Assembly (NCBI RefSeq): GCF_000365425.1
Contig: NZ_AQOV01000001.1
Coordinates: forward strand, 930,001 to 994,000
Origin: Methylomonas sp. MK1
GTDB taxonomy: Bacteria > Pseudomonadota > Gammaproteobacteria > Methylococcales > Methylomonadaceae
Direction: 5' to 3'
DNA: 64,000 nucleotides
Both the position numbers and the translations under genes were made by a program. Shown here in pieces: positions 4,175 to 15,931 of the stretch. Within the stretch, counting starts at the first letter, position 1, and each line of letters begins with the position of its first letter. The notes below the pieces were generated by a model that was given only the letters and a program-made list of their open reading frames with translations, was not told where the DNA came from and did no database searches.

Positions 4175-6973
4175 TTAAATATTTAGTTTGTCTTCTATTT
4201 TTTGTTTGTAGTTTAGGAAATGGGCGGCCTGTAACTGCTCGTTTCGGTCTGTGCCCAACAGACGACAAGGCACATCTATTTCAGTGATGTGAAACGGATA
4301 GTCGTCGTGGTTTTTCCGATAGCCCAGTATGTGGGCGCGGATCGGTTTGAAGCTGTCGGCGTTGGCAACGGAAAACTTTTGTTCGTTACAGTAAATCGCA
4401 ATAGCACCGCCCTCCTCGGTCGCTATCCGGACTCTCAGATCCATCACACTGGCGCCAAGTTTGACCGGCACAGCGTGACAAGACAGCACCCCCGCTGAAT
4501 TACGCTGGATTTCATAAAATTTGACACTTAAGCCATCCGGCAATTGCGCGCGCGCCAGCAAGGTTCCCAAAAACACCGAATAGTGGGTGACGACATGTTC
4601 CGGGTTGGCATTGCTATGCTGATGGACAAACAGCGCGCCTTTTTCGTCAAGCACGTAAACACCAACGTGTTTGCTGGTAGCATGATAAAAAACCTGAATC
4701 ACATCAGCCAAATTCTGCGTATATAAAGACGGAATATAGGTTTGATCCAGTACGTAGGCATCAAAAAATACTGCGGAAAATTGCGGATTCGGTTTGGCTA
4801 ATTCATGTAACAGTTGGTTTTGGGTGTCCAGCCGATAATAACCCAGGCTGCCGTTTCTAAGTTGGAACAAGCCATAACCGGTCTCAGCTGCCACGATATA
4901 GCGCTGCAAGCCGTCCCGACCGGAGGCAAAAAACTTTAGCAAATTGCCGAACAAGGCTTCGATACGCAAGATGATGCTTTTGCCGCGCACCGGGTTGTAA
5001 CATAGAACTTGGAGTCTATCGGCCGACAACGGCGTGGCGCTGTTGTTAAACACATCGACGAGGCAGTTAAAAACCCCCTCTATGCCTATATAGCGCTGCA
5101 AACTGGCCTCACCCCAATTGGATACGGATAAGCGCTGGATGCTCTGGATGAAACACTGGCGGCTGTCACCGTAACTTAAAGGGTCCGAGCGTTCGCTCAT
5201 CACTAATTGTTGATTGTTCGCGTCGATAGCCAAACTTTCGCCGAGATTTATCAGTAACAACGACGACGCGACGCGATTCGGCTCGCCGTAAACCTCCAGA
5301 TCGTTCTCCCTGCCGGGCAAATAGCGGCTTAGAAACGCATTCAACTCATTAAATAGTTGATATAAATCATTACTGGCTATTTTAAGACTGGAGGTAACCA
5401 GTTGCAGATTGAGCGATTTTTTATATAAGCCGTTTACCACCGCCCAGCATAAAACTTCGAGTAAGCTATCGCCGGATTTAATAGCGCTTTCCGGGGAGGC
5501 TTTTTGCGACGCAATTCTGTCGTCATATAGACACCAGCGCGTTGGCACATCATCAGCAAGGACTTCGACAACCACCAAAAGATCAGGTTTGGCATGGACA
5601 GTGGTTCGGGTGGTTAGCACTTCGATTTTGTCTGGGCGTAAATCCAGGGTTGCCCGCAATTTCCGGCCGATCAATTTCAAGTCTCGGTTTTCGCGCTGCG
5701 CCTGATCCAATGGCAAACCGGAAAACTTTAAAATCATCCGCAGGCACTGTTGCAGTTGATCGCGAATCACCACATGCTCAATGCTGGCTTTCTTGATATC
5801 CCAAAATTTTTGACTGGCCAAATTGTCCAACAAATCGTCCGGCCATTCCCATTGGTTTGCCACGCTGTGCAGATAATCTTCACGTTGCAGACGTACCCTG
5901 TTCTCCGTGAGATTTTCGGACGCGGCCATGATTTTCATGTAAAAACATTCCCGAATCAGATTCAACCGGCGTTTGGACTGTGCCTGGCGCAGATAGGCAT
6001 CCACTTTGCGGTACATCAGCAAGTATGGATCCAGGCTTTCGACACTGAAATCGCCTTGATACACCGCCTGTTTTAATGTCAGGCACAGCCACTGCGGTTC
6101 GGGAAATTCACTGGCGTAACTTTCCATCAGCAGCAGCTTCAACAAGGACTTATGCGGGGACGTCAAAGATTTGTATATATGCCAAAGCGTAGCGCTGACG
6201 AATTCCGCCATCGGCATATCTTCTAGGCCACCGAAATCGACAACGTCGGTTTCCGAAATAAACCGGTTCTCCAGCAAATGCGCAACATATTGCTTATAGT
6301 ATTTTTCCTGTTGCGGCGGCACCAACCACCAGACCGGTACCCGCCCGGCGATGTAAATCGAGGTGCGGTAAAACTCTTCCAACAGCAGATAATGTTGGGT
6401 TTCGCCGCTACTCTCTTTAGAGATCGGCGTATTTTCGCCGCGCAAAAACTGCGTGGCATCTACCAGAAAAAAATGCGTCTCGATTTTTAAGGTCGCCGCC
6501 CATTTTTCCACTTCCTGAGCTTTTTGCCGCAATTCGTTTAATTCGTCGGCTGCCAAAGTGGATGAATGGCAAAGCCAAATATCAATATCGCTGTTTTTCG
6601 AAAACGCCATACTACCGACGCTACCCATTAAAAAAATAGCCTGGATAGGATAGTGTCTTAAGGCTTTGCGCTTGTAGACAAAGCCTTTGGAAAACTGCTT
6701 GGCAACATCGGTAGCCTGCTTGTTGGGCGTGTAATCGGGAATACCGGCCGGGCCTTCCAGCGACACGAAACCGGGCAACAAGGGATGGTTTTGATGAAAC
6801 AGTAAAGGCAGCAGCTTCAAGAAATCCTGCTGGCGCGGCTGTAGAAAACTTTGCACATGTTGCAAACGCAACTGATTGAAGTGCTTGAATCGTTGGGCAA
6901 CCGCATATAGATCTTTTTTGCTGATCTCTTCGCCCGGCGCGCCTAAATGGATGGGTAGGAATCGATTGGTCAA
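4175..6973 (-). CDS. cyaA: Class I adenylate cyclase
   Basis: CyaA makes cAMP from ATP in the cytoplasm. The 932-residue protein has the nucleotidyltransferase signature FLMGSVGSMAFSKNSDIDIW at about 116-135, with the two catalytic Asp residues in DIDIW, and the long regulatory C-terminus of enterobacterial-type class I cyclases. The only sensible start is a TTG at 6973, since there is no other start until the catalytic motif. E. coli cyaA also starts with UUG, which keeps expression low. The histidine phosphatase gene lies 42 bases upstream on the same strand. cAMP often controls type IV pili, which may connect this gene with the GTPase operon upstream. Confidence 0.93.
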   Translation of the reverse strand: MTNRFLPIHLGAPGEEISKKDLYAVAQRFKHFNQLRLQHVQSFLQPRQQDFLKLLPLLFHQNHPLLPGFVSLEGPAGIPDYTPNKQATDVAKQFSKGFVYKRKALRHYPIQAIFLMGSVGSMAFSKNSDIDIWLCHSSTLAADELNELRQKAQEVEKWAATLKIETHFFLVDATQFLRGENTPISKESSGETQHYLLLEEFYRTSIYIAGRVPVWWLVPPQQEKYYKQYVAHLLENRFISETDVVDFGGLEDMPMAEFVSATLWHIYKSLTSPHKSLLKLLLMESYASEFPEPQWLCLTLKQAVYQGDFSVESLDPYLLMYRKVDAYLRQAQSKRRLNLIRECFYMKIMAASENLTENRVRLQREDYLHSVANQWEWPDDLLDNLASQKFWDIKKASIEHVVIRDQLQQCLRMILKFSGLPLDQAQRENRDLKLIGRKLRATLDLRPDKIEVLTTRTTVHAKPDLLVVVEVLADDVPTRWCLYDDRIASQKASPESAIKSGDSLLEVLCWAVVNGLYKKSLNLQLVTSSLKIASNDLYQLFNELNAFLSRYLPGRENDLEVYGEPNRVASSLLLINLGESLAIDANNQQLVMSERSDPLSYGDSRQCFIQSIQRLSVSNWGEASLQRYIGIEGVFNCLVDVFNNSATPLSADRLQVLCYNPVRGKSIILRIEALFGNLLKFFASGRDGLQRYIVAAETGYGLFQLRNGSLGYYRLDTQNQLLHELAKPNPQFSAVFFDAYVLDQTYIPSLYTQNLADVIQVFYHATSKHVGVYVLDEKGALFVHQHSNANPEHVVTHYSVFLGTLLARAQLPDGLSVKFYEIQRNSAGVLSCHAVPVKLGASVMDLRVRIATEEGGAIAIYCNEQKFSVANADSFKPIRAHILGYRKNHDDYPFHITEIDVPCRLLGTDRNEQLQAAHFLNYKQKIEDKLNI

Positions 6974-7015
6974 AATTGCCGCGCCTAAATCAAGTGTGAG
7001 GCCAGTATAGAAGAA

Positions 7016-7615
7016 TCAACCCGGCTTGTGAAAATTAAGCTGGACGAAGCGCCCCTTACCGTCATCGAAGCTGGTAAAACGGGTTAAACAGGCGTGCGGC
7101 AAATCGATATGAAAACTTTGGGTAACCGGCAGATTGAAGGCTTCCGCGAATATTGCTCTGATCACACCAGCATGGGTAACCACCAGCACTCGCCGCCCGG
7201 CCTGGCCGGTCAATAAATTTTCCCAGCCCTGCCGCACGCGGGCGGCGAATGTTTGATAGCTTTCGGCATTGGGCGGGGTGAAATTCACAGGGTCTTTATA
7301 AAATTCCGCAAGTGCGTCGGGCCAGCGACTGGAAATTTGCTCGGCGGTTTGGCCTTCCCAAGCGCCGAAATCAATTTCACGCCATGCCGGTTCGATCACC
7401 AAGTCCAGTTGCTGTTGTTCACACCAGGCGGCGGCAAAGGAACGGCAACGGCGCAACGGCGAACTGATCACCGCGTCCCACTGCCCTTCCCCGCATTGGC
7501 TATACATCTGCCGCCAACCGCGTTCGGTAAGCGGATCGTCTGTGACTCCGCGATAACACGAACCGCCTCGGGCTTCGCCGTGCCGCAGAAAATCGATTAT
7601 GGTTGACTGATGCAT
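7016..7615 (-). CDS. Histidine phosphatase family protein (alpha-ribazole phosphatase-like)
   Basis: This 199-residue enzyme has the RHGE phosphohistidine motif near residue 11, a second conserved Arg in SSPLRRCRSFA, and the catalytic His in VVTHAGVIRA. This branch-2 layout fits CobC-type alpha-ribazole-5'-phosphate phosphatases of cobalamin synthesis, but related enzymes act on other phosphoesters. No cobalamin genes are near. It starts 10 bases after the PhnD-like gene, so it may be co-transcribed with the GTPase/roadblock operon. Substrate assignment is tentative. Confidence 0.8.
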   Translation of the reverse strand: MHQSTIIDFLRHGEARGGSCYRGVTDDPLTERGWRQMYSQCGEGQWDAVISSPLRRCRSFAAAWCEQQQLDLVIEPAWREIDFGAWEGQTAEQISSRWPDALAEFYKDPVNFTPPNAESYQTFAARVRQGWENLLTGQAGRRVLVVTHAGVIRAIFAEAFNLPVTQSFHIDLPHACLTRFTSFDDGKGRFVQLNFHKPG

Positions 7616-7625
7616 TAGGATGAAA

Positions 7626-8372
7626 TCAAGTGTTCAAGGTGTCCATCAAATCGATCATGAACTCCATTTCTTCGTCCTCGATTTTTTGCCATGCAGTGAA
7701 ACCAAGAGCATTCAGCACACCGTTACCTTTTTCATCCTTATCCATCTCCAGTAGTATTTTTTGGAAGTCGTCGCGACGACTCTGCAATCTCGGACCTATC
7801 ATCAGAGAATGGTAGATGACGCTAATTTGACTGCGCACCAATATGCGCAGCTGTTTTTTGATCATACCGGACAGGTTGTCGTATGCCTCAGCGAGAATAA
7901 TGCCGACATCCGCCTCGCCTTTCAGCAGATGTTTTGCCACCAACACATGATTGTCCGATAACAGCGGGATGATATTGCCGGCATGCAAATCAGCGGGCTC
8001 CAACATGATCATCCCCATCAGGCGCACATCCGGATCGTCGGTGAATGCCACACGCGTATTCGGCTTTAAATCCGCCACGTCGTTGATATTGCTATCGGCG
8101 TTAACAGCAATGATCGCTTCGTCGGCTTCACCCTGGGCGCGCACCAATGGCAAAAAACCTTTCTCTCTGACCAGCATGGCCGCATCGAAGGGATTGGCGT
8201 AAATCAAATCGATCTTATCCTCGGCTATGGCTTGGTGTAGATCGTGATAATGATTGTACATTTCCAAATGGATGGCTTCGGCGCTCTGTTTTTGCAACCA
8301 AGTGTTGAAGATATACCAACCCGACAGGCGGTCTGGGGCAAAATCCGGGCTAACTGTAAACATGTAAGACAT
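7626..8372 (-). CDS. PhnD-like substrate-binding-fold protein, cytoplasmic
   Basis: I chose the ATG at 8372, which has a GGGGAG ribosome site 5-6 bases upstream. A TTG 12 bases earlier is less likely. The 248-residue product resembles the phosphonate/PhnD type of periplasmic binding fold: IDLIYANPFDAAMLV, LKPNTRVAF, KGEADVGII. It has no signal peptide, lipobox or ABC-transporter neighbours. It is therefore probably a cytoplasmic sensor or partner using the binding fold, not a transport component. It overlaps the PAS gene region closely and belongs to the GTPase/roadblock operon. The ligand is unknown. Confidence 0.75.
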   Translation of the reverse strand: MSYMFTVSPDFAPDRLSGWYIFNTWLQKQSAEAIHLEMYNHYHDLHQAIAEDKIDLIYANPFDAAMLVREKGFLPLVRAQGEADEAIIAVNADSNINDVADLKPNTRVAFTDDPDVRLMGMIMLEPADLHAGNIIPLLSDNHVLVAKHLLKGEADVGIILAEAYDNLSGMIKKQLRILVRSQISVIYHSLMIGPRLQSRRDDFQKILLEMDKDEKGNGVLNALGFTAWQKIEDEEMEFMIDLMDTLNT

Positions 8373-8384
8373 GAGGCTCCCCAA

Positions 8385-8861
8385 TTAAATAAGTGTCGGA
8401 TACAGTGCGATGCATTCATCGACTTTGCTGCGCGAGGGTTTGCGGCGCACCGAGGTATAGCCAACCACCTTACCAGCGCGCACATTGGGAATGACCGTCG
8501 CTTTTACCCAATAATAACCGCCATCCTTGCGTAAGTTTTTCACAAAGCCTTGCCATTTTTCACCACGTAGTACCGTATCCCATAAGTCTTTAAACGCGGC
8601 GGCCGGCATATCCGGATGCCTGAGAATACAATGCGGCGCGCCGAGTAACTCCGCTTCGGTATAGCCCGACATTTCCACAAATGCGCGATTGACGTGGCTG
8701 ATGATGCCATCCGGCGTGGTGGTGGAAACAATCAACTTGCCATCGGGATACGGCGTTTCAAGCTCGGTGTACAGCACTTTTCTGGATTTGCCATCGCAAT
8801 AGGTAAGCGTTGCTTCCTGGTACTCGCCAACGATGTCTTCGGGTTTCATATCAACGATCAT
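8385..8861 (-). CDS. PAS domain protein, Aer-like
   Basis: The 158-residue protein is essentially one PAS domain (about 40-145). Motifs GIISHVNRAFVEMSGYTE, LRHPDMP and RKDGGYYWVKATV match the PAS domain of the aerotaxis receptor Aer and similar chemoreceptors, which bind FAD or heme and read redox state or oxygen. There is no membrane segment, HAMP, kinase or methyl-accepting domain, so it must pass its signal to a partner. GGAGT stands about 6 bases before the ATG. It is followed after 12 bases by the PhnD-like gene and preceded by a roadblock gene. Cofactor binding is inferred from the subfamily. Confidence 0.85.
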   Translation of the reverse strand: MIVDMKPEDIVGEYQEATLTYCDGKSRKVLYTELETPYPDGKLIVSTTTPDGIISHVNRAFVEMSGYTEAELLGAPHCILRHPDMPAAAFKDLWDTVLRGEKWQGFVKNLRKDGGYYWVKATVIPNVRAGKVVGYTSVRRKPSRSKVDECIALYPTLI

Positions 8862-8888
8862 GATTTACTCCGGGTTGCCGGTTAGGGT

Positions 8889-9251
8889 TTACAGCATTTC
8901 GGAAATACTCTCCGCCGCACGCTTCACGTCAAGGAAGATTAGTCCGAGTTTGGCGTTGGGCTTGGCGAGTACCGTGAGTACGGCTTCGTTGCCGGCATAG
9001 GTCATTAACACATAGCCCCTGGCACCTTTGATCAGCACCTGCTCCAAATTGCCGCGATTTAATTCTTGAGCGGTCCTATCGCCCAAGGACAACATCGCCG
9101 CACTCATAGCGCCCACCCGATCTTCGTCCATACCGGCTGGCAATACCGACGCCATCATCAAACCGTCGGTGGAAATCACACCGGAGGCTTCTATATCCGC
9201 CGAAGTACCGTTCAGCTCGGTTAAAACCGACGTCAGCATGTCTGCTTTCAT
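8889..9251 (-). CDS. Roadblock/LC7 domain protein, MglB-like
   Basis: This 120-residue protein is a single Roadblock/LC7 domain: ASGVISTDGLMMASVLP near the start, MSAAMLSLGDRTAQEL in the middle, and a VLTVLAKPNAKLGLIFLDV strand near the end. Roadblock proteins of the MglB type form dimers that bind a Ras-like GTPase and often act as its GTPase-activating protein. The GTPase gene is two genes upstream in the same operon. The gene lies 41 bases after the 218-residue gene and 27 bases before the PAS gene. Partnership with the local GTPase is inferred from context. Confidence 0.88.
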   Translation of the reverse strand: MKADMLTSVLTELNGTSADIEASGVISTDGLMMASVLPAGMDEDRVGAMSAAMLSLGDRTAQELNRGNLEQVLIKGARGYVLMTYAGNEAVLTVLAKPNAKLGLIFLDVKRAAESISEML

Positions 9252-9292
9252 AATCTAATTCCTCTTAACTAATGGGTGATGTGGCGATGCGT

Positions 9293-9949
9293 TTAATTGG
9301 CAGCATCAGCGGCTTTGGTTAAATAACGGGTGATTAAAGCCCAGGCCAGGGTTACAAACTCCGCCTGGTTAAAATGCGGTACGCCGGTGATCGCCAATAC
9401 GAAACGGTGTTTACCGACGAACATCGGCCAAAAGCCGATTTGACTGTTACCGAAAGGATCTACTATGGCCCAGGCGTGACTGGATATGCCCATATTGTTT
9501 ATCAGTAATCCGGAACGGCGTTTATGCACGGTCGCCAGTTCCGCGCTAAGTGCGGACAGTTCTTCGGCTACTTCATGCGGAAAGCCGCTGCAAGCCAGGT
9601 AAAAGCCTTGGTCGTCTGCCAATAGCACTTTGCCGCTCTCGGAAATCTTTCCCAACAAATCAGGCAAAATCTCCTCTAGCGCTGAGTGTGGCGCCTGCAA
9701 AGGTGTATCCACGCCTTGCACCCAGCCCAGTTTTTGGCAATACAACAGCAATTGCAAGGCCTTGTCCTCGTCATCGATTTCCATCAATGTTTGCAACTGC
9801 GCGATATTGAGTGCCGGAGTATGTTCCTGTTGCAGCAAGTGGATTAAAAACCGCCGAGGTTTATCGGTTTCCGGCGACGATATGGCGTAATAAGCACCAG
9901 CGGGGGTGGGATAGAGATACAGCCCATTAATCAGATCAAATCTTTCCAT
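9293..9949 (-). CDS. Protein with N-terminal helical and C-terminal roadblock-like domain
   Basis: The product has 218 residues. The N-terminal ~85 residues look like a small helical, winged-helix-like region (PRRFLIHLLQ, LQTLMEIDDEDKALQLL). The C-terminal ~120 residues show a divergent roadblock-like pattern: GKVLLADDQGFYLACSGFP, then SALSAELATVHKR and a closing hydrophobic strand. The gene starts 5 bases after the GTPase stop, which implies translational coupling. It may be a second regulator or effector of the GTPase. The fold call is by eye and a profile search should test it. Confidence 0.6.
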   Translation of the reverse strand: MERFDLINGLYLYPTPAGAYYAISSPETDKPRRFLIHLLQQEHTPALNIAQLQTLMEIDDEDKALQLLLYCQKLGWVQGVDTPLQAPHSALEEILPDLLGKISESGKVLLADDQGFYLACSGFPHEVAEELSALSAELATVHKRRSGLLINNMGISSHAWAIVDPFGNSQIGFWPMFVGKHRFVLAITGVPHFNQAEFVTLAWALITRYLTKAADAAN

Positions 9950-9954
9950 CGTGA

Positions 9955-10491
9955 TTAGCCCGCCAAACCAGGATCGAGGGAATATAACAGGGCTTGTACC
10001 AACAAAGAGACGTCATTCTTTTCCCGGGCATCCACCGCAAAAACCGGCGGTTTCAAGCCAACTCCCTGCAATTGCACATGGTAGTCTTCTATTGAGGGCG
10101 TACTACTCAAATCCATTTGTGTCACCCCAATCGCTACGCTGGTATCGTTGATAAACTTACCGAATGCGTCCAGGAAAAAACGCATGTCCTGAAAAGGGTC
10201 CGCGCGCGTGTTGTCCAGCAGTAAAATTAAGCCGATGCCTCCGTTGGTTAAAATATCCCACATGAAATCGAATCGCTCCTGGCCGGGAGTGCCGTACAAG
10301 TGAATTTTTTCGCCGCCCGCCAAATTCATCACACCGTAGTCCATAGCCACCGTTGTGGATGCTTTACGGTTTTTTGTCATATCACTGGCGGCCGCATCGG
10401 TTTTGACCGGCGGGACATCACTGATGGCATTAATTGCAGTCGTTTTGCCGGCACCTACTGGGCCCGTGAAAATAATTTTGTATTGACTCAT
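9955..10491 (-). CDS. Ras-like small GTPase, MglA-like
   Basis: This 178-residue protein has a Walker A motif GPVGAGKT (about 10-17), a switch I region with conserved Thr (KASTTVAMDYG), a switch II TPGQERF and a GVTQMD segment in place of the usual NKxD guanine motif. It belongs with bacterial Ras-like GTPases such as MglA and the GTPases found with roadblock proteins. An AAGGAA ribosome site precedes the ATG. MglA-type switches set cell polarity and control type IV pili or gliding. The altered NKxD motif means guanine specificity should be tested. It is flanked by a receiver-like protein and roadblock-like proteins. Confidence 0.88.
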   Translation of the reverse strand: MSQYKIIFTGPVGAGKTTAINAISDVPPVKTDAAASDMTKNRKASTTVAMDYGVMNLAGGEKIHLYGTPGQERFDFMWDILTNGGIGLILLLDNTRADPFQDMRFFLDAFGKFINDTSVAIGVTQMDLSSTPSIEDYHVQLQGVGLKPPVFAVDAREKNDVSLLVQALLYSLDPGLAG

Positions 10492-10510
10492 CGAGATTCC
10501 TTATCGTTTG

Positions 10511-11740
10511 CTAAGCGCCGCGCAATTTGTTGAGAATTTTGCTTAATAAACCTTCATTTTTAGGCTTCTTGGTTGGTTCCACGGCAATCACCGCATCAAC
10601 TTGACGTTCGCTCTGTTTCAATATGCCTATGGCATGACACGCACTAATAAACACAAACACATACTGCGGTTTGACATGTAACAGACCAGCGACTTCCAGC
10701 GGCGTTCTCGGTGCCTGAACCAACAATGCGGCAATGCGCAAAGCATCCGGCGTGATGACCAGCCGGGTAAAATTCGGCCATCTTTCCAAGTAGACCGGCC
10801 GTTGAATATCCAGGCCTATCGGGAAGCGTCCCTTGGATGTCCAGATCGCCAATTTCCAGACAAAAGCGCCCATATCTTGAAACTTGTCTTCGGCGCGCTG
10901 AATAGCGGTTGTAGAATCGACTGCCGTCAAAATCATTTTGCCGACGGAGCCTTTACCCAATGGCATCCCGGCAAATGCGCGGGTTTGTTTATCGTCGGCA
11001 TCTACCCAGATTTCCTGGTTTTCCGGAAAAATCGTCAAAGGTTTCCAAATCGAGCAAAGTTGCAAGACGCGCGACTGCAAATTAGCGGTTTTATAGGCCG
11101 ACATCACGTAGCCCAAAAAATACTGCCTGGGGTCGTAACAGGCTGTTAACAACTGCACCTCGTCGTCGAAATCGATATCGCTCAGTGTGCCCAAAAACGC
11201 GGTGAAGCCGCCTTCGTTCAACTGCATCGCCGATTGATGTTTGCTGGCTTTATGGTGTTCAGCGGAATCACCTGAGTTTGGTGCCTTAGCCTTATTGACA
11301 TAGACATCCATAGTCATTTTTTTCGGCGTCTCGTCTTTGGGCGGTTCCGGCACATCAGGTATCTTTGGTGCTACCTGCGCAATTTTCGTACGTTCGGTAA
11401 CAGATTTGCAAGCTTCGGCAACCGCCTTGATTTTGTCGAGCACCGCCGTTATTTGTTCGACATTCACCGGCTTCTTGATGAAATAAGTGTTATCCAGTTG
11501 CAGGTTTTGTAACGACAATAAGATGATCGGGCGGCCCGGCGCGGCGGCTTTTCTGGCATCCAAAATATCCCGGGCTTTAGGGTGATCCGCGTCGATCATA
11601 TCGATGTCGGCTTCGGCATCGTCAACCACGACGGCAACCCCTCGGCATGGCCCCTTCAAATACATTTCCATGGTTTTACAGGTGCGGCTATCCATGCCAT
11701 GCAGAGCTATTCGAAATGGCGTTTTATTCGGCTTGCTCAT
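10511..11740 (-). CDS. Receiver-like / winged-helix-like protein of unknown function
   Basis: The N-terminal ~105 of 409 residues have a receiver-like order: a strand at FRIALHG, Asp-containing IDMIDAD, PIILLSL, then FIKKPVNVEQI with the Lys-Pro typical of receivers. The acidic pair normally found after strand 1 is missing, so this may be a non-phosphorylated pseudo-receiver. A charged, Pro-rich linker follows (about 115-160). The rest is an unrecognised domain ending in a winged-helix-like segment (LRIAALLVQAPRTPLEVAGL) and a basic tail. Its ATG overlaps the stop of the TPR gene by 4 bases, so the two are probably translated in tandem. Confidence 0.6.
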   Translation of the reverse strand: MSKPNKTPFRIALHGMDSRTCKTMEMYLKGPCRGVAVVVDDAEADIDMIDADHPKARDILDARKAAAPGRPIILLSLQNLQLDNTYFIKKPVNVEQITAVLDKIKAVAEACKSVTERTKIAQVAPKIPDVPEPPKDETPKKMTMDVYVNKAKAPNSGDSAEHHKASKHQSAMQLNEGGFTAFLGTLSDIDFDDEVQLLTACYDPRQYFLGYVMSAYKTANLQSRVLQLCSIWKPLTIFPENQEIWVDADDKQTRAFAGMPLGKGSVGKMILTAVDSTTAIQRAEDKFQDMGAFVWKLAIWTSKGRFPIGLDIQRPVYLERWPNFTRLVITPDALRIAALLVQAPRTPLEVAGLLHVKPQYVFVFISACHAIGILKQSERQVDAVIAVEPTKKPKNEGLLSKILNKLRGA

Positions 11741-12438
11741 GATGCCTGTCCTTCAAAGTAATTTGCCAATTCCCGCCATTCAGCATCTAGGACAATGGCA
11801 GAGTCGCTAAAGCGTTGCCGATTGATTTGAAAGCGCTCGCGGTTTTTTGTGGATTTATAAAGCTCTAACAAAGCCAGTTGTAAATCCGGACGATCATGCT
11901 GAAGGGTGATGCCGGTTTCCAACACATCCATGGCCTGCTCAAGCTGGCTGTATTCGATAAAGTCATTGGCTAGCGCCAGATAATCATGCTCGGTTTCTGT
12001 TTGCTGCTTAGACATGACCAGTTCGCGGCGACCCAACAGACCTTTGCTGAACAAAGAATATCGATTACCTGGCGGCGTCTGCCCGTTTGTTTTGAGCAAA
12101 TCCAGACATTGCTGAACAGACAGTCGCGCCTGACTAGCTTGTATCATACGGCGACTAATCGAAGCCCCTTTCCCATTCAAAATAATCACTAAATCTAACA
12201 GCGCCGCGTAGAGTTGCTCGGACAGGTGCCGGTCGTAACAAATATAAATCCGTCGTAGATGCGCCAGCAGATCTTTCGGGTTTCTACTAATTTTGAAAAC
12301 TATGGCGGTCAATGCTTGATCGGCATCGGCGTTGGGGCAGCTAAACAAGCTGAGTTCCCGGTCGTGCCAAAAGTCGGTTTCTTGCGGGAACTCGTCAAGC
12401 GGTGTTCCAGCAAGCAGTCGGGAAAAGTATTGGGGCAT
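11737..12438 (-). CDS. TPR protein resembling FimV C-terminal region
   Basis: This is the first gene of the GTPase/roadblock operon, with a GGAGGG ribosome site. The 233-residue product is helical. Its C-terminal part (YLALANDFIEYSQLEQAMDV, then PDLQLALLELYKSTKNRERF) looks like the TPR-type repeat at the C-terminus of FimV, which in pseudomonads links pole-localised factors to type IV pilus function and cAMP. There is no signal peptide, LysM domain or membrane segment, so it is not full FimV. Similarity is by eye. If correct, it favours a role of the operon in polarity or twitching. Confidence 0.55.
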   Translation of the reverse strand: MPQYFSRLLAGTPLDEFPQETDFWHDRELSLFSCPNADADQALTAIVFKISRNPKDLLAHLRRIYICYDRHLSEQLYAALLDLVIILNGKGASISRRMIQASQARLSVQQCLDLLKTNGQTPPGNRYSLFSKGLLGRRELVMSKQQTETEHDYLALANDFIEYSQLEQAMDVLETGITLQHDRPDLQLALLELYKSTKNRERFQINRQRFSDSAIVLDAEWRELANYFEGQAS

Positions 12439-12498
12439 GCCACCCTCCGAATTAATCGATGCTCGAAGGGTAGCAGTTAAAAAGCCAATTTCCAGGAT

Positions 12499-13890
12499 TT
12501 AGTGGGGTATTTGTTGTCTTGCTTCACATATTGCCTGACGAACCGCCTCAGGTGCGGTGCCGCCGATATGATTGCGGGCAGCGACCGAACCTTCCAGTTT
12601 AAGAATGTCGAAAACGTCAGCTGTAATGGTGGCGGAAAAGCCCTGCAACTCCGTGAGCGCTAATTCTGACAGATCCCGATCCGTTTGTAGTCCCAGGCGC
12701 ACAGCTTGGCCTACAACTTCGTGGGCATCGCGAAATGGCATACCTTTGCGAACCAAATAATCAGCCAAGTCCGTAGCGGTAGCAAAGCCTCTTTTCGCCG
12801 CGTTATACATATTTTCGCGTTTGGCTTGAATGCGCGGCATCATATCGGCAAAGGCCCGCAGACAATTGATTAAGGTGTCGGCGGTATCGAACAAGGGTTC
12901 CTTGTCTTCCTGATTATCTTTGTTGTACGCCAAGGGCTGGCTTTTCATCAGCATCAATAAGGACATCAAATGCCCGGTGACCCGGCCGGATTTACCGCGC
13001 ACCAGTTCTGGTACGTCGGGGTTTTTCTTTTGCGGCATGATCGAGGAGCCGGTGCAAAACGCATCGGGAATGTCGATAAAATTGAATTGCGCGCTGGCCC
13101 ACAACACCAATTCTTCGGAAAACCGCGACAGATGCATCATGATTAAACTGCCGGCCGCCGCAAACTCAATCGCAAAATCGCGGTCGCTAACCGAATCCAA
13201 GGAGTTATTCGACGGCCGGGAAAATCCCAATAGTTCGGCGGTCATAAAACGGTCGATAGGATAACTGGTACCGGCCAATGCTGCGGCGCCCAACGGCATC
13301 ACATTCAAGCGTTTACAGCAATCTTGCAGACGCTCCTTATCCCGGCACAGCATTTCGAACCACGCCATCAGATGATGGCCGAATGTCACGGGCTGCGCGA
13401 CTTGCAAATGGGTAAAACCCGGCATGATGGTGTCGGCCTCGCGCTCCGCCACATCCAATAAAGCGATTTGCAGGCGTTGCAACTGCGTCAATATCGTTTC
13501 AATTTCGCTGCGCAAATATAAGCGAATGTCAGTTGCGACCTGGTCATTACGCGAACGGCCGGTATGCAGTTTTTTGCCGGCAATGCCGATCAAATCGGTC
13601 AAACGCGCTTCGATGTTCATGTGCACATCTTCCTGCTTGATCGACCAGACGAACTCGCCGCGTTCGATCTCGCCGCCGATTTGCATCAATCCGCTGCGAA
13701 TGTCGGCGAGCTCCTGCTCAGTCAGAATACCTATTTTGCACAGCATGGCCGCGTGCGCCAGAGAGCCTTGAATATCTTGCCGGGCCATGCGCCGGTCAAA
13801 ATTGACTGAAGCGGTAAATTCTTCGACAAAAGCATCGGTGGCTTCGGCAAAACGGGCGCTGGAAAGTTTTTCGGTGTTAACGGTGGTCAT
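12499..13890 (-). CDS. argH: Argininosuccinate lyase
   Basis: ArgH splits argininosuccinate into arginine and fumarate, the last step of arginine synthesis. The 463-residue protein carries the fumarase/aspartase-superfamily signature [12 protein letters not shown] with the catalytic Ser, plus [20 protein letters not shown] near residue 110 and the TxLQ block ([12 protein letters not shown]). The ATG at 13890 (MTTVNTEKL) is preferred over a TTG two codons upstream. It lies 35 bases after the PhoQ-like gene. It sits alone, without other arg genes. The length is normal for the family. Confidence 0.96.
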
Positions 13891-13925: not shown

Positions 13926-15269
13926 TTATACCGATGCTGCAGCTATCCACCTTGGGAATTGCACACTCACATGCAAACCACCTAGCTGCTTGGAACGCAT
14001 GATCTCCAGAGTACCGCCATAAAATACGGCGATGTCACGCACAATCGCCAAGCCTAGCCCATGTCCCTGCACTGCTTCGTCCAGCCGTAAACCCCGCTTA
14101 CTTAATTGCTGCATATCCTGCAACGAACAACCGGGACCATCGTCTTCGACACGGATGGTAATGCCGTCCTCATGTTCAACTGAGACTACGACCTGCTTAT
14201 CAGCCCATTTGCAGGCGTTGTCCAGCAAATTACCGGTCAGTTCCAGCATGTCTTCCCGATCAAAATTGATTAGTTGATCGGGGGCATTTACTTTGATCGT
14301 TAGATTTTTCTCAGCATAAACGTTTTGCAAAAGCATGACTAAGGCCGTGAGTTCTTGCTGCGAATTAAACACACTGGCAGTTTGCAGATTACCGGAGATA
14401 CGGGCGCGTTTTAATTCTCGCTCGATGCGCTCATGTATCGCTTGAGTTTGCTGTTGCAACTGATTGCGCAGCTCCGGATGATCATCCAGTTGCGAATTTT
14501 CAGCCAAGCGAAACAGCATCGCCAAAGGCGTTTTTAACGCGTGAGCCAAATTGCCAATCGCCGTGCGCGATTGATGCAAGCGCCTCTCAACCAGCACTAG
14601 CAAGCGATTGACTTCCGCAACCAAAGGTTTGATTTCCGCCGGCACTCTGGCTTGGATCTGTGACTGACGGCCATAGGCAATCTCCGCCAATTCATCCCGC
14701 GCGGCCTGCAACGGTTTCAGCGATCTGCGCACATCGTTACTTTGGAGGGCGATTGCAGTCAGCAGTACCATGGCCGTCAGTACCAGATAGGCGAGCCGGA
14801 TATGATCTATATCGTGACCAATATCGCTCAAATCCTCGGCAATACTAATCGTGATTGCATGACCAAACCGCTCGAAACCTCGACTCAAGACCAGCAAAGG
14901 TTGATGATGCGGCCCATCGGGAAAATGGAATTGCCTGGCGGTATTGACAGGCTCCGTGGCGAAAGGCAAAACCCCATCTTGCAGCGATTTTGAATAATAG
15001 GCTTTTCCGTCAATCTGGATCACGAAATAGTGGCCGGAATACGCCTGACCGTAAACGGTGCCTGCATGCGAGCTATCGAAGATCAGTTCGCCTTCGGCAT
15101 TGCGTTTCAATGTATCGAGCAACGAGTCGCCATCGTGTTGCAAGCGGGTCAGCATTTGTTTTTCCGCCACGGAGCGAATCACCCAATCTGCTGCCAACCA
15201 GTGTCCGGCAAACACCATACTCAGGATAATGATCAAGCCGCGGTTGAGACGCTGGCGTAATGAAATCAC
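13926..15269 (-). CDS. Sensor histidine kinase, PhoQ-like
   Basis: The product has 447 residues. A membrane segment near 13-30 precedes a periplasmic region of about 130 residues. A second membrane segment (about 160-178) and a HAMP-like linker follow. The HisKA box has NLAHALKTPLAMLF with the phosphorylated His, the PhoQ-subfamily form of the motif. The HATPase domain has LLDNACKWAD, VEDDGPG and GHGLGLAIV. The periplasmic part does not show an obvious Mg2+-binding acidic cluster, so the stimulus may differ from enteric PhoQ. Its start overlaps the response-regulator stop by 4 bases. Confidence 0.9.
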   Translation of the reverse strand: MISLRQRLNRGLIIILSMVFAGHWLAADWVIRSVAEKQMLTRLQHDGDSLLDTLKRNAEGELIFDSSHAGTVYGQAYSGHYFVIQIDGKAYYSKSLQDGVLPFATEPVNTARQFHFPDGPHHQPLLVLSRGFERFGHAITISIAEDLSDIGHDIDHIRLAYLVLTAMVLLTAIALQSNDVRRSLKPLQAARDELAEIAYGRQSQIQARVPAEIKPLVAEVNRLLVLVERRLHQSRTAIGNLAHALKTPLAMLFRLAENSQLDDHPELRNQLQQQTQAIHERIERELKRARISGNLQTASVFNSQQELTALVMLLQNVYAEKNLTIKVNAPDQLINFDREDMLELTGNLLDNACKWADKQVVVSVEHEDGITIRVEDDGPGCSLQDMQQLSKRGLRLDEAVQGHGLGLAIVRDIAVFYGGTLEIMRSKQLGGLHVSVQFPRWIAAASV

Positions 15270-15931
15270 GGCTTCTCACCGAAGATATAGCCTTGCCCAC
15301 GCCGAGTAGCGATCAAATCCTTACCCAATTTACGCCGTAACCGATTGATATACACTTCGATAACGTTGCTGGCGGGGTCGCCATCGCTTTCGTACACGTG
15401 CTCAAGTAAATGGCTTTTGGTGAGCAGCTTACCGGGATGCAGCATGAAATAGCGCAGCAAACGAAACTCGATTGCCGTCAACTCGGCATGCTCAGCGCCA
15501 TCCACACTGACCGTTTGTCTGTCTTCGTCCAAGGTCACACCGCAACCACACAGTTGCGGCTGCATCATCCCGTGCATGCGCTTTAACAAGGCTTGGATGC
15601 GTGCCTGTAACTCCTCGATATGAAACGGTTTGCCTAAATAGTCGTCAGCACCCACTTTAAAGCCGTCGACTTTTTCATGCCAGGCATCCCTCGCAGTCAG
15701 CACAATGACCGGCACATGATTGCCCGCCTGCCGCCAACGTCGCAGTACTTCTAGTCCGGGCATTTTCGGCAAGCCTAAATCCAGGATGACGATATCGTAG
15801 GATTCAGTCATGCCTAAAAACTCGCCGCTTTCGCCATCCATGGCCAAATCGACCGCAAACCCGGCTCTTTCCAGGTCGGCTTTTAAGGATCGGGACAGGC
15901 CTGGATCATCTTCTACCAGCAATAGTCGCAT
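15266..15931 (-). CDS. Response regulator, OmpR/PhoP family
   Basis: The 221-residue regulator has an N-terminal receiver with the acidic pocket VEDD (7-9), phosphoacceptor Asp51 in VILDLGLP and Lys101 in LGKPF. A C-terminal winged-helix DNA-binding domain follows (LTAIEFRLLRYFMLHPGKLL, then VIEVYINRLRRKLG). It overlaps the kinase gene by 4 bases and is transcribed away from the cytochrome b561 gene across a 135-base gap, so it may control that gene and itself. No clear PhoP box was found in the gap. Confidence 0.93.
   Translation of the reverse strand: MRLLLVEDDPGLSRSLKADLERAGFAVDLAMDGESGEFLGMTESYDIVILDLGLPKMPGLEVLRRWRQAGNHVPVIVLTARDAWHEKVDGFKVGADDYLGKPFHIEELQARIQALLKRMHGMMQPQLCGCGVTLDEDRQTVSVDGAEHAELTAIEFRLLRYFMLHPGKLLTKSHLLEHVYESDGDPASNVIEVYINRLRRKLGKDLIATRRGQGYIFGEKP

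What the first reader, a model, noticed from the sequence alone, without database searches (positions are those of the whole stretch)
7626..12438. GTPase-roadblock-PAS operon: candidate undescribed switch
Seven adjacent minus-strand genes with short gaps or 4-base overlaps combine a Ras-like GTPase, a roadblock protein, a second roadblock-like protein, an Aer-like PAS protein, a cytoplasmic PhnD-like fold, a receiver-like/winged-helix protein and a FimV-like TPR protein. MglA/MglB pairs are known, but I know of no described system with this full set. A working model is that redox or a small ligand is sensed by PAS and PhnD-like proteins, which set the GTPase state through the roadblock proteins and act on the pole or pili. 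The neighbouring cyaA fits, since cAMP governs pili in other gammaproteobacteria. The model is inference; the gene set is seen.
Basis: partly seen in the sequence, partly recalled or inferred. Interest (0 to 1): 0.78.

Follow-up and report, generated by a model that had tools for sequence, protein, structure and literature searches.

The report
Redox-sensing bacterial Ras-like switch operon
A methane-eating bacterium carries a seven-gene operon, shared by many distant relatives, that joins a Ras-like GTPase switch of a known but uncharacterised class to flavin- or heme-type sensor proteins; it probably lets the cell's redox or oxygen state steer a surface-movement or cell-pole function, but no part has been tested at the bench.

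Summary
Seven minus-strand genes at 7626-12438 of a Methylomonas genome encode a TPR protein (A), a receiver-like/winged-helix protein (B), a Ras-like GTPase (C), a winged-helix + roadblock protein (D), a roadblock protein (E), an Aer-type PAS protein (F) and a PhnD-like protein (G). The order is old: among 63 evaluable named loci, A, B, D and E are in 63, C in 61, F+G in 43.

The core is not undescribed. B+C+roadblock is the 'Group 3 MglA' system of beta/gamma-Proteobacteria named in 2014 (PMC4316618). I found no description of the constant partners A and D or of the exchangeable sensors (FAD-type PAS with PhnD-like protein, protoglobin, FIST, STAS-PhnD) in the listings and passages I saw. 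Five of the flavin contacts named for Aer are kept in 19 of 19 F proteins; one histidine motif is kept in 22 of 22 globins.

Best reading: a redox/oxygen-gated MglA-type switch acting on surface motility or the pole. The pilus link is suggestive only. The cyaA link is not conserved (5 of 80 loci). Four of 30 carriers of D have no GTPase match.

The parts
11737..12438 (-). A: TPR-type protein, 233 aa; candidate effector
   Evidence: TPR families in relatives; present in 63 of 63 evaluable named loci; 23-51% identity to the other 29 rows of A5
10511..11740 (-). B: 409 aa, receiver-like N-terminus (about 9-121), low-confidence linker, alpha/beta region (194-302), winged helix (333-376), basic amphipathic C-terminal tail (398-408)
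   Evidence: AF2 pLDDT 83.4; Foldseek receiver hits prob 1.00, best E 0.012; profile hit to a receiver E 9.5e-4; column counts; tail motif in 23 of 40 rows by a strict pattern, two of the other rows being cut short
9955..10491 (-). C: MglA-type small Ras-like GTPase, 178 aa, Group 3 motifs (GPVGAGKT, YGTPGQER, TQMD, VDAR)
   Evidence: in 61 of 63 evaluable loci
9293..9949 (-). D: winged helix (about 30-80) + roadblock domain (91-217), 218 aa; second roadblock protein
   Evidence: AF2 pLDDT 90.5; Foldseek best MglB 6hjm E 3.1e-4, prob 1.00; no Pfam family
8889..9251 (-). E: roadblock/LC7 (MglB-type) protein, 120 aa
   Evidence: PF03259 8.6e-17; MglB 6h5b E 3.6e-4 and CvnB5 3leq 3.8e-12 by profile; mean column identity 83% over 31 sequences
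8385..8861 (-). F: stand-alone Aer-type PAS protein, 158 aa, probable FAD redox sensor
   Evidence: E. coli Aer PAS 8dik E 4.8e-37; flavin contacts H77, R81, W94, N109, R139 in 19 of 19 (contacts from PMC9668731); the Aer contact M69 is leucine in 19 of 19
7626..8372 (-). G: PhnD-like periplasmic-binding-protein fold without a visible signal peptide (by eye), about 248 aa from the ATG at 8372
   Evidence: PF12974 2.7e-43; start by conservation; fused to a STAS domain in L107
7016..7615 (-). Neighbour only: alpha-ribazole phosphatase-like protein, not part of the conserved system
   Evidence: just under the curated cut-off; near the operon in 5 of 80 loci, all Methylomonas
4175..6973 (-). Neighbour only: class I adenylate cyclase cyaA, not part of the conserved system
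   Evidence: near the operon in 5 of 80 loci, all Methylomonas

Best explanation
The operon is a sensor-equipped Group 3 MglA system: a cytoplasmic Ras-like GTPase switch with its own inputs. Proposed working: the FAD-type PAS protein F reads the redox state of electron transport and the PhnD-like protein G reads a small ligand; in other lineages a protoglobin (heme), FIST or STAS-PhnD protein stands beside the core instead or in addition. The sensor acts on the roadblock protein E, alone or with D, and so sets the GTP/GDP state of C. B, with a degenerate receiver and a basic amphipathic tail, serves as membrane or pole scaffold and possibly as exchange-factor side, like RomR for MglA. A, the TPR protein, is the effector of the GTP form, like SgmX for MglA. 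The output is most likely placement or activity of a surface-motility machine, type IV pili first. Shown here: the gene set and its conservation, modelled folds of B and D, GTPase motifs, five Aer flavin contacts, the globin histidine motif, and exchange of sensor genes beside E. Inferred: cofactor binding, every protein contact, GAP or GEF activity, and the output.
For: Gene order kept in 62 of 63 evaluable loci and 26 lineages under 70% identity in D. C carries the Group 3 marks: lysine at the G4 position in only 2 of 30, R at G5 in 30 of 30 (PMC4316618). E and D are MglB-type roadblock proteins. F matches E. coli Aer PAS at 4.8e-37 and keeps five flavin contacts in 19 of 19. Protoglobins near D/E in 15 of 63 loci, six globins checked against Pfam, [VI]GxxH in 22 of 22 globins, 21 of them distinct; FIST in L138 and L159, STAS-PhnD in L107, CZB in L115 and L136. 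Output: in L117 the operon and its globin are followed on the same strand by pilB (TIGR02538, 873 bits, over its cut-off) and a PilC/GspF-type gene; bactofilin lies beside the operon in the Sphaerotilus/Leptothrix loci and L157; PilM in 30 of 30 carriers against 30 of 50 non-carriers over the cut-off; a Group 3 orphan mglB mutation in Snodgrassella alters pilus-type colony flares (PMC11112851); MglA-GTP stimulates pili through the TPR protein SgmX, needed for polar PilB, in Myxococcus (PMC7519303 abstract).
Against: Four of 30 carriers of D (G141, G185, G237, G602; G602 is one contig, rated 100% complete) have no GTPase match at 1e-10, so the GTPase is dispensable in some lineages. FlhA is also enriched: 28 of 30 against 21 of 50; among genomes of at least 2.4 Mb PilM is 28 of 28 against 25 of 30 (p 0.03) and FlhA 27 of 28 against 19 of 30 (p 0.002), so pili are not singled out. 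Within the order 22 of 24 carriers of B have PilM and 21 of 24 FlhA; G028 (94% complete) lacks both. A pilB neighbour was seen in one locus only. Profile comparison of D with E found no relation. A is FimV-like only weakly. Of the Aer flavin contacts named, M69 is leucine in F, and T27 could not be placed. No contact between any two proteins was tested.
Confidence: 0.5

Rival explanations
1. A transcriptional switch: sensors and GTPase control B (and perhaps D), whose winged helices bind DNA and regulate genes, as proposed for Group 3 in PMC4316618.
For: B has a receiver-like and a winged-helix part; the 2014 paper reads this as transcriptional; Cvn8 of the related conservon type controls gene expression (PMC13343842 abstract).
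Against: The presumed recognition helices are hardly basic: B 4% K/R, mean charge +0.2 over 40; D mean charge -0.6 over 21; the recognition helix of the window's own OmpR-type regulator has +2. B ends in a tail of membrane-binding type. Charge alone decides nothing: that regulator's whole DNA-binding half has net charge -1 and the winged helix of B +1.6 on average.
Confidence: 0.2
2. A pole/motility polarity module mainly for flagella or general motility rather than type IV pili.
For: FlhA enrichment in carriers is statistically stronger than PilM after size matching; within the window's genus 17 of 17 carriers against 3 of 8 non-carriers (one a fragment) have FlhA.
Against: Carriers without FlhA exist (G124, G407, G026, G033) that have PilM; pilB, not flagellar genes, follows the operon in L117.
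Confidence: 0.15
3. A metabolic or respiration-linked signalling system without a motility output, retained in chemolithotrophs and methanotrophs; the link with motility genes reflects genome size.
For: Many of the carriers with a genus name are methane, sulfur or iron oxidisers (names, lifestyles recalled); G028 has the system without PilM or FlhA; small genomes tend to lack all three.
Against: Some enrichment remains in genomes of at least 2.4 Mb; Snodgrassella data.
Confidence: 0.15

Closest known systems
Group 3 MglA systems of beta/gamma-Proteobacteria (Wuichet and Sogaard-Andersen, PMC4316618)
   Same: MglA with deviant G4 and DAR G5 motif; one or two MglB; a neighbour with receiver-like N-terminus and winged-helix C-terminus; same taxa.
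   Different: The parts read describe no TPR protein, no winged-helix/roadblock protein as such and no sensor genes; D may be one of their 'two MglB', which I could not check (their supplementary table was not read).
Myxococcus MglA/MglB/RomR/RomX/RomY/SgmX polarity module (PMC9481161 abstract and passages, PMC7519303 abstract)
   Same: Parts list matches in kind: GTPase, roadblock protein, response-regulator protein, TPR effector.
   Different: Group 1 GTPase; PMC4316618 says mglA is not near its partners there; Frz chemosensory input. Similarity of A to SgmX and of B to RomR is by role only, not tested.
Actinobacterial conservons / AGPS (CvnA-F, PMC13343842 abstract)
   Same: One operon with roadblock protein and Ras-like GTPase; accessory sensor proteins (CvnE/CvnF) in some.
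   Different: No CvnA histidine kinase in the window operon and no DUF742 hit (DUF742 as the CvnC domain is recalled).
Aer and CetA/CetB energy taxis (PMC9668731, PMC2628428, abstracts and passages)
   Same: F is an Aer-type FAD PAS, stand-alone like CetB.
   Different: No HAMP or chemoreceptor partner among the seven genes; neighbours are GTPase and roadblock proteins.
Snodgrassella mgl locus (PMC11112851, passages)
   Same: Group 3 mglA with two coupled mglB; orphan mglB allele changes pilus-type colony flares.
   Different: No PAS or PhnD genes mentioned in the passages seen.

Membership tests
Group 3 MglA system | GTPase with G4 lacking the lysine and DAR-type G5 | tested here: met
   lysine at the G4 position in 2 of 30; D154 30/30, A155 27/30, R156 30/30
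Group 3 MglA system | one or two MglB homologues beside it | tested here: met
   E by Pfam and PDB profile; D by fold
Group 3 MglA system | neighbour with receiver-like N-terminus, variable linker, winged-helix C-terminus | tested here: met
   B: receiver; winged helix from the secondary structure of the model only
Group 3 MglA system | almost exclusively in beta/gamma-Proteobacteria | tested here: inconclusive
   D in 26 of 274 class genomes and 5 of 398 phylum genomes, the window's own and four of the same class; other phyla were not searched genome by genome, and this is D, not the GTPase
Group 3 MglA system | placement in the Group 3 clade of a tree with reference MglA groups | not tested
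   no reference sequences of the other groups were fetched; tree holds only relatives of C
Actinobacterial conservon (AGPS) | CvnA histidine kinase in the operon | tested here: not met
   no kinase among the seven genes; a GAF histidine kinase follows E in L099 (same stretch as L151) and L112
Actinobacterial conservon (AGPS) | CvnC (DUF742, recalled) | tested here: not met
   no DUF742 hit for A, B or D at E up to 1
Group 1 MglA (Myxococcus type) | canonical [NT]KxD G4 motif | tested here: not met
   window has TQMD; lysine in 2 of 30
Aer/CetB energy sensor (for F) | FAD contact residues of Aer | tested here: met
   H53, R57, W70, N85, R115 in 19 of 19; M69 is L in 19 of 19; T27 could not be placed. 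FAD binding itself was not testable here
Aer/CetB energy sensor (for F) | HAMP/chemoreceptor partner | tested here: not met
   none among the genes of the operon
Roadblock/LC7 superfamily (for D) | roadblock fold | tested here: met
   but profile-profile with E negative and best PDB profile hit CvnB5 only E 0.0046
FimV/HubP polar hub (for A) | match to the FimV model | tested here: inconclusive
   1 of 30 members at 0.0031; PDB 4mal E 0.0099

The most novel reading that the evidence does not exclude
Chemoreceptor-free energy taxis: flavin or heme sensors set a Ras-like GTPase directly, through roadblock proteins, and the GTPase steers pili or the pole through a TPR effector. One operon would hold sensor, switch, scaffold and effector of a complete polarity module, with sensors exchanged between lineages.
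Probability: 0.3. Interest if true: 0.85.

Novelty: new variant of a known kind. Interest (0 to 1): 0.55.

Why it matters
Group 3 MglA systems have been described from sequence since 2014; I saw no paper that gives their signal or, beyond the Snodgrassella allele, their output. Finding that the expanded form always carries a TPR protein and a winged-helix/roadblock protein (63 of 63 evaluable loci), and usually a sensor whose cofactor residues can be recognised, turns 'what do they sense and what do they move?' into a short list of experiments. If the model holds, bacteria couple respiration to a Ras-like switch without chemoreceptors or CheA, a parallel to the accessory sensors of actinobacterial G protein systems.

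Tried and rejected
cAMP link through cyaA: rejected, 5 of 80 loci, all Methylomonas. Profile-profile comparison D-E and D-B: no relation found; the fold search settled D instead. FimV membership of A: inconclusive. PHROGs: nothing useful. Foldseek on B gave only receiver-type hits with confidence; its 194-302 region stays unidentified. A promoter for the operon: the scan of 6900-12700 found one promoter-like site, at the end of the phosphatase gene just before cyaA, against 6.3 in shuffles; no strong terminator call either (7 against 7.7). Pili versus flagella by co-occurrence: not separable. GTPase tree: the D-bearing set is not one clade (6 changes against 10.4 in shuffles), with long branches that make details unsafe. 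Mechanical ORFs in GC-rich loci run too long, so lengths of C, D, E there (for example L126, L133, L138, L141) are not evidence of fusions. Rows dropped: gene counts leave out 17 of 80 named loci whose contig ends cut a flank; the 50 non-carrier genomes are handles G041-G094 in order without the carriers and without G058 (0.4 Mb), not a random draw; with 90 handles did not run. All loci were found through D, so D is present by construction. The strict tail pattern for B fits 23 of 40 rows.
Full report
What is there. The window lies in a Methylomonas genome close to Methylomonas sp. LW13 (a locus at 98% identity in D; G000 has 5.2 Mb). Seven minus-strand ORFs lie at 7626-12438 with overlaps or gaps of at most 41 bases. 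Pfam names C (GTPase), E (roadblock), F (PAS) and G (phosphonate-binding fold); B and D match nothing, A only a TPR model at E 0.65. The likely start of G is the ATG at 8372.

Fold evidence. D models with mean pLDDT 90.5 as a winged helix (about 30-80) followed by a helix-strand-strand-helix-three-strands-helix domain (91-217). The first eight Foldseek matches in the PDB are seven MglB chains and one axonemal entry; best E 3.1e-4, prob 1.00. B models at pLDDT 83.4: receiver-like part, low-confidence linker, an unidentified alpha/beta part, a winged helix and a C-terminal helix; the receiver is confirmed by sequence profile (8svz, E 9.5e-4) and Foldseek (prob 1.00, best E 0.012). The receiver is degenerate: D52 40 of 40, D50 in 34 of 40 with N in 6, K90-P91 40 of 40, but no acidic pair after the first strand. 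B ends in a basic amphipathic tail of the kind GLLsRILskLR; a strict pattern fits 23 of 40 rows, most of the rest look alike by eye, and two are cut short. A has TPR motifs in its relatives.

Conservation. B is found in 24 of 41 genomes of the relatives sample: 17 of 25 of the genus (own included), 7 of 16 elsewhere in the order. D is found in 26 of 274 genomes of the class, 22 of 222 genera, and in 5 of 398 of a phylum sample: the window's own genome and four others of the same class. The GTPase at E 1e-40 or better is in 41 of the 274 class genomes, 22 of the 26 with D among them, so D marks an expanded form of a wider GTPase family. A named scan gave 151 relatives, best 80 kept: methanotrophs, Thiodiazotropha, Chromatiaceae, Halothiobacillus, Acidithiobacillus, Gallionellaceae, Rhodocyclaceae, Sphaerotilus, Leptothrix and many unnamed gammaproteobacteria; it starts from one peptide pattern and is not exhaustive. 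Of these 80, 63 have both flanks long enough: A, B, D, E in 63, C in 61, F and G together in 43, G without F in 2, protoglobin in 15. cyaA and the phosphatase were seen in 5 of 80 loci, all Methylomonas; 62 of the 80 reach 4 kb or more past D.

Sensors. F aligns to the E. coli Aer PAS at E 4.8e-37. In the Aer structure the flavin is touched by H53, R57, W70, N85 and R115, besides M69 and T27 (PMC9668731, abstract and passages). By the alignment the first five are H77, R81, W94, N109 and R139 of F, and all are invariant in 19 of 19 F proteins; M69 is leucine in all 19, and T27 as numbered there could not be placed. CetB of Campylobacter is a precedent for a separate Aer-type PAS protein (PMC2628428, abstract and passages). 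In other lineages a protoglobin gene lies between D and E or, in L106 and L117, after E; six of these globins were checked against Pfam. All 22 globins aligned (21 distinct; L099 and L151 are the same gene) keep [VI]GxxH, whose histidine I take, from memory, for the heme ligand. FIST proteins follow E in L138 and L159, CZB proteins in L115 and L136, GAF histidine kinases in L099 and L112. I read the position beside E as a sensor slot; that is inference, and globin and F+G occur together in 5 of 63 loci. G has no visible signal sequence, and its relative in L107 is fused to a STAS domain, which fits a cytoplasmic place; its ligand is unknown (profile hits to ArrX, PtxB and a phosphonate-binding protein near 1e-5).

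What is known. PMC4316618 (passages, and section 18 in full) defines Group 3 MglA: beta/gamma-Proteobacteria, G4 often without the usual lysine, G5 DAR, one or two MglB, and a neighbour with receiver-like and winged-helix parts. C shows these marks (lysine at G4 in 2 of 30, R156 in 30 of 30), and B and E fit. I file the core as a member, with one test open: a tree with reference groups. Simpler sets also occur: B-C-E without A and D in L164, L165 and L173, B-C in L162. I found no paper on the TPR protein, on D as a winged-helix/roadblock protein, or on the sensors of this system in the listings of eight searches on the topic; the listings are capped and the library lacks most subscription journals. 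Accessory sensors are known for the related actinobacterial systems (PMC13343842, abstract). PMC11112851 (passages) reports that a Group 3 orphan mglB allele in Snodgrassella alters pilus-type colony flares.

Output. For pili: in L117 E and a globin are followed on the same strand by pilB (TIGR02538, 873 bits against a cut-off of 676) and a gene best matched by PilC models, under their cut-offs. Bactofilin lies just upstream of A in five Sphaerotilus/Leptothrix loci, divergent beside A in L157, and downstream on the other strand about 3 kb away in L098, L100 and L101 and 5 kb away in L102 (Pfam checked for L126, L129, L157, L098, L102). In Myxococcus MglA-GTP binds the TPR protein SgmX, which matters for polar PilB (PMC7519303, abstract). 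Co-occurrence: PilM in 30 of 30 carriers of D against 30 of 50 non-carriers over the cut-off (33 at 1e-10); FlhA in 28 of 30 against 21 of 50. With genomes of at least 2.4 Mb: PilM 28 of 28 against 25 of 30, p 0.03; FlhA 27 of 28 against 19 of 30, p 0.002. Within the order: PilM 22 of 24 carriers of B against 12 of 17; FlhA 21 of 24 against 8 of 17; within the genus PilM 16 of 17 against 4 of 8 and FlhA 17 of 17 against 3 of 8 (tallied by hand, fragments counted). The system travels with motility; pili are not separated from flagella by this, and relatedness was not corrected for.

Against a GTPase-centred reading. Four of 30 carriers of D have no match to the GTPase profile at 1e-10; G602, one contig rated 100% complete, keeps a short A-like ORF, B, D, E, F and G without it. 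The rest of the module can be kept without this GTPase. The 2014 paper reports conservons that lost mglA.

Mechanism. I put 0.5 on a redox- or oxygen-gated Group 3 switch with a surface-motility or polar output. DNA binding by B remains possible; its recognition helix is poor in basic residues (4% K/R over 40), which speaks against it without excluding it. All contacts between the proteins are inferred.

Noticed in passing
L099, L112, L120, L150, L155: Loci with B, D and E (A too, except at the contig end of L120) but no GTPase gene; in L099, L112 and L120 B is longer (495-512 aa).
   Followed up: partly
L146 6261-9608, L147 159-4293, L149 3325-7639: Second locus type: B-like protein, diverged E, protoglobin, A, D, with no GTPase seen beside them; G117 and G243 (L147, L146) also hold the ordinary operon.
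   Followed up: partly
L144 6103-7470, L145 6115-7563: A and D alone, without B, C or E, next to a formyltransferase and a glycine-cleavage T gene (Pfam checked in L144).
   Followed up: partly
L066, L072, L074, L076, L078: Two E-type roadblock genes in tandem in one methanotroph group.
   Followed up: no
L113, L116, L124: A second pair downstream on the other strand: a large PAS protein (838 aa) and another PhnD-like protein.
   Followed up: no
L111, L150 5484-6218: A second PhnD-like gene between D and E, in addition to G.
   Followed up: no
L162 4860-7305: A paralogous GTPase set (B, C) with an ABC-ATPase-like ORF (by eye) and a 134-aa ORF that looked roadblock-like by eye but matches no Pfam family.
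   Followed up: partly
window 13926-15931: An OmpR-type response regulator and a histidine-kinase-like ORF upstream of the argH-like gene (named by eye); ORF clusters with these proteins lie near 13 loci each (clusters 8 and 9).
   Followed up: no
G001, G003, G004, G008, G010, G019, G022, G023: Eight of 25 genomes of the window's genus lack B; seven of them are small (2.0-3.7 Mb), and six of these seven lack a full FlhA; two are only 83% complete.
   Followed up: partly
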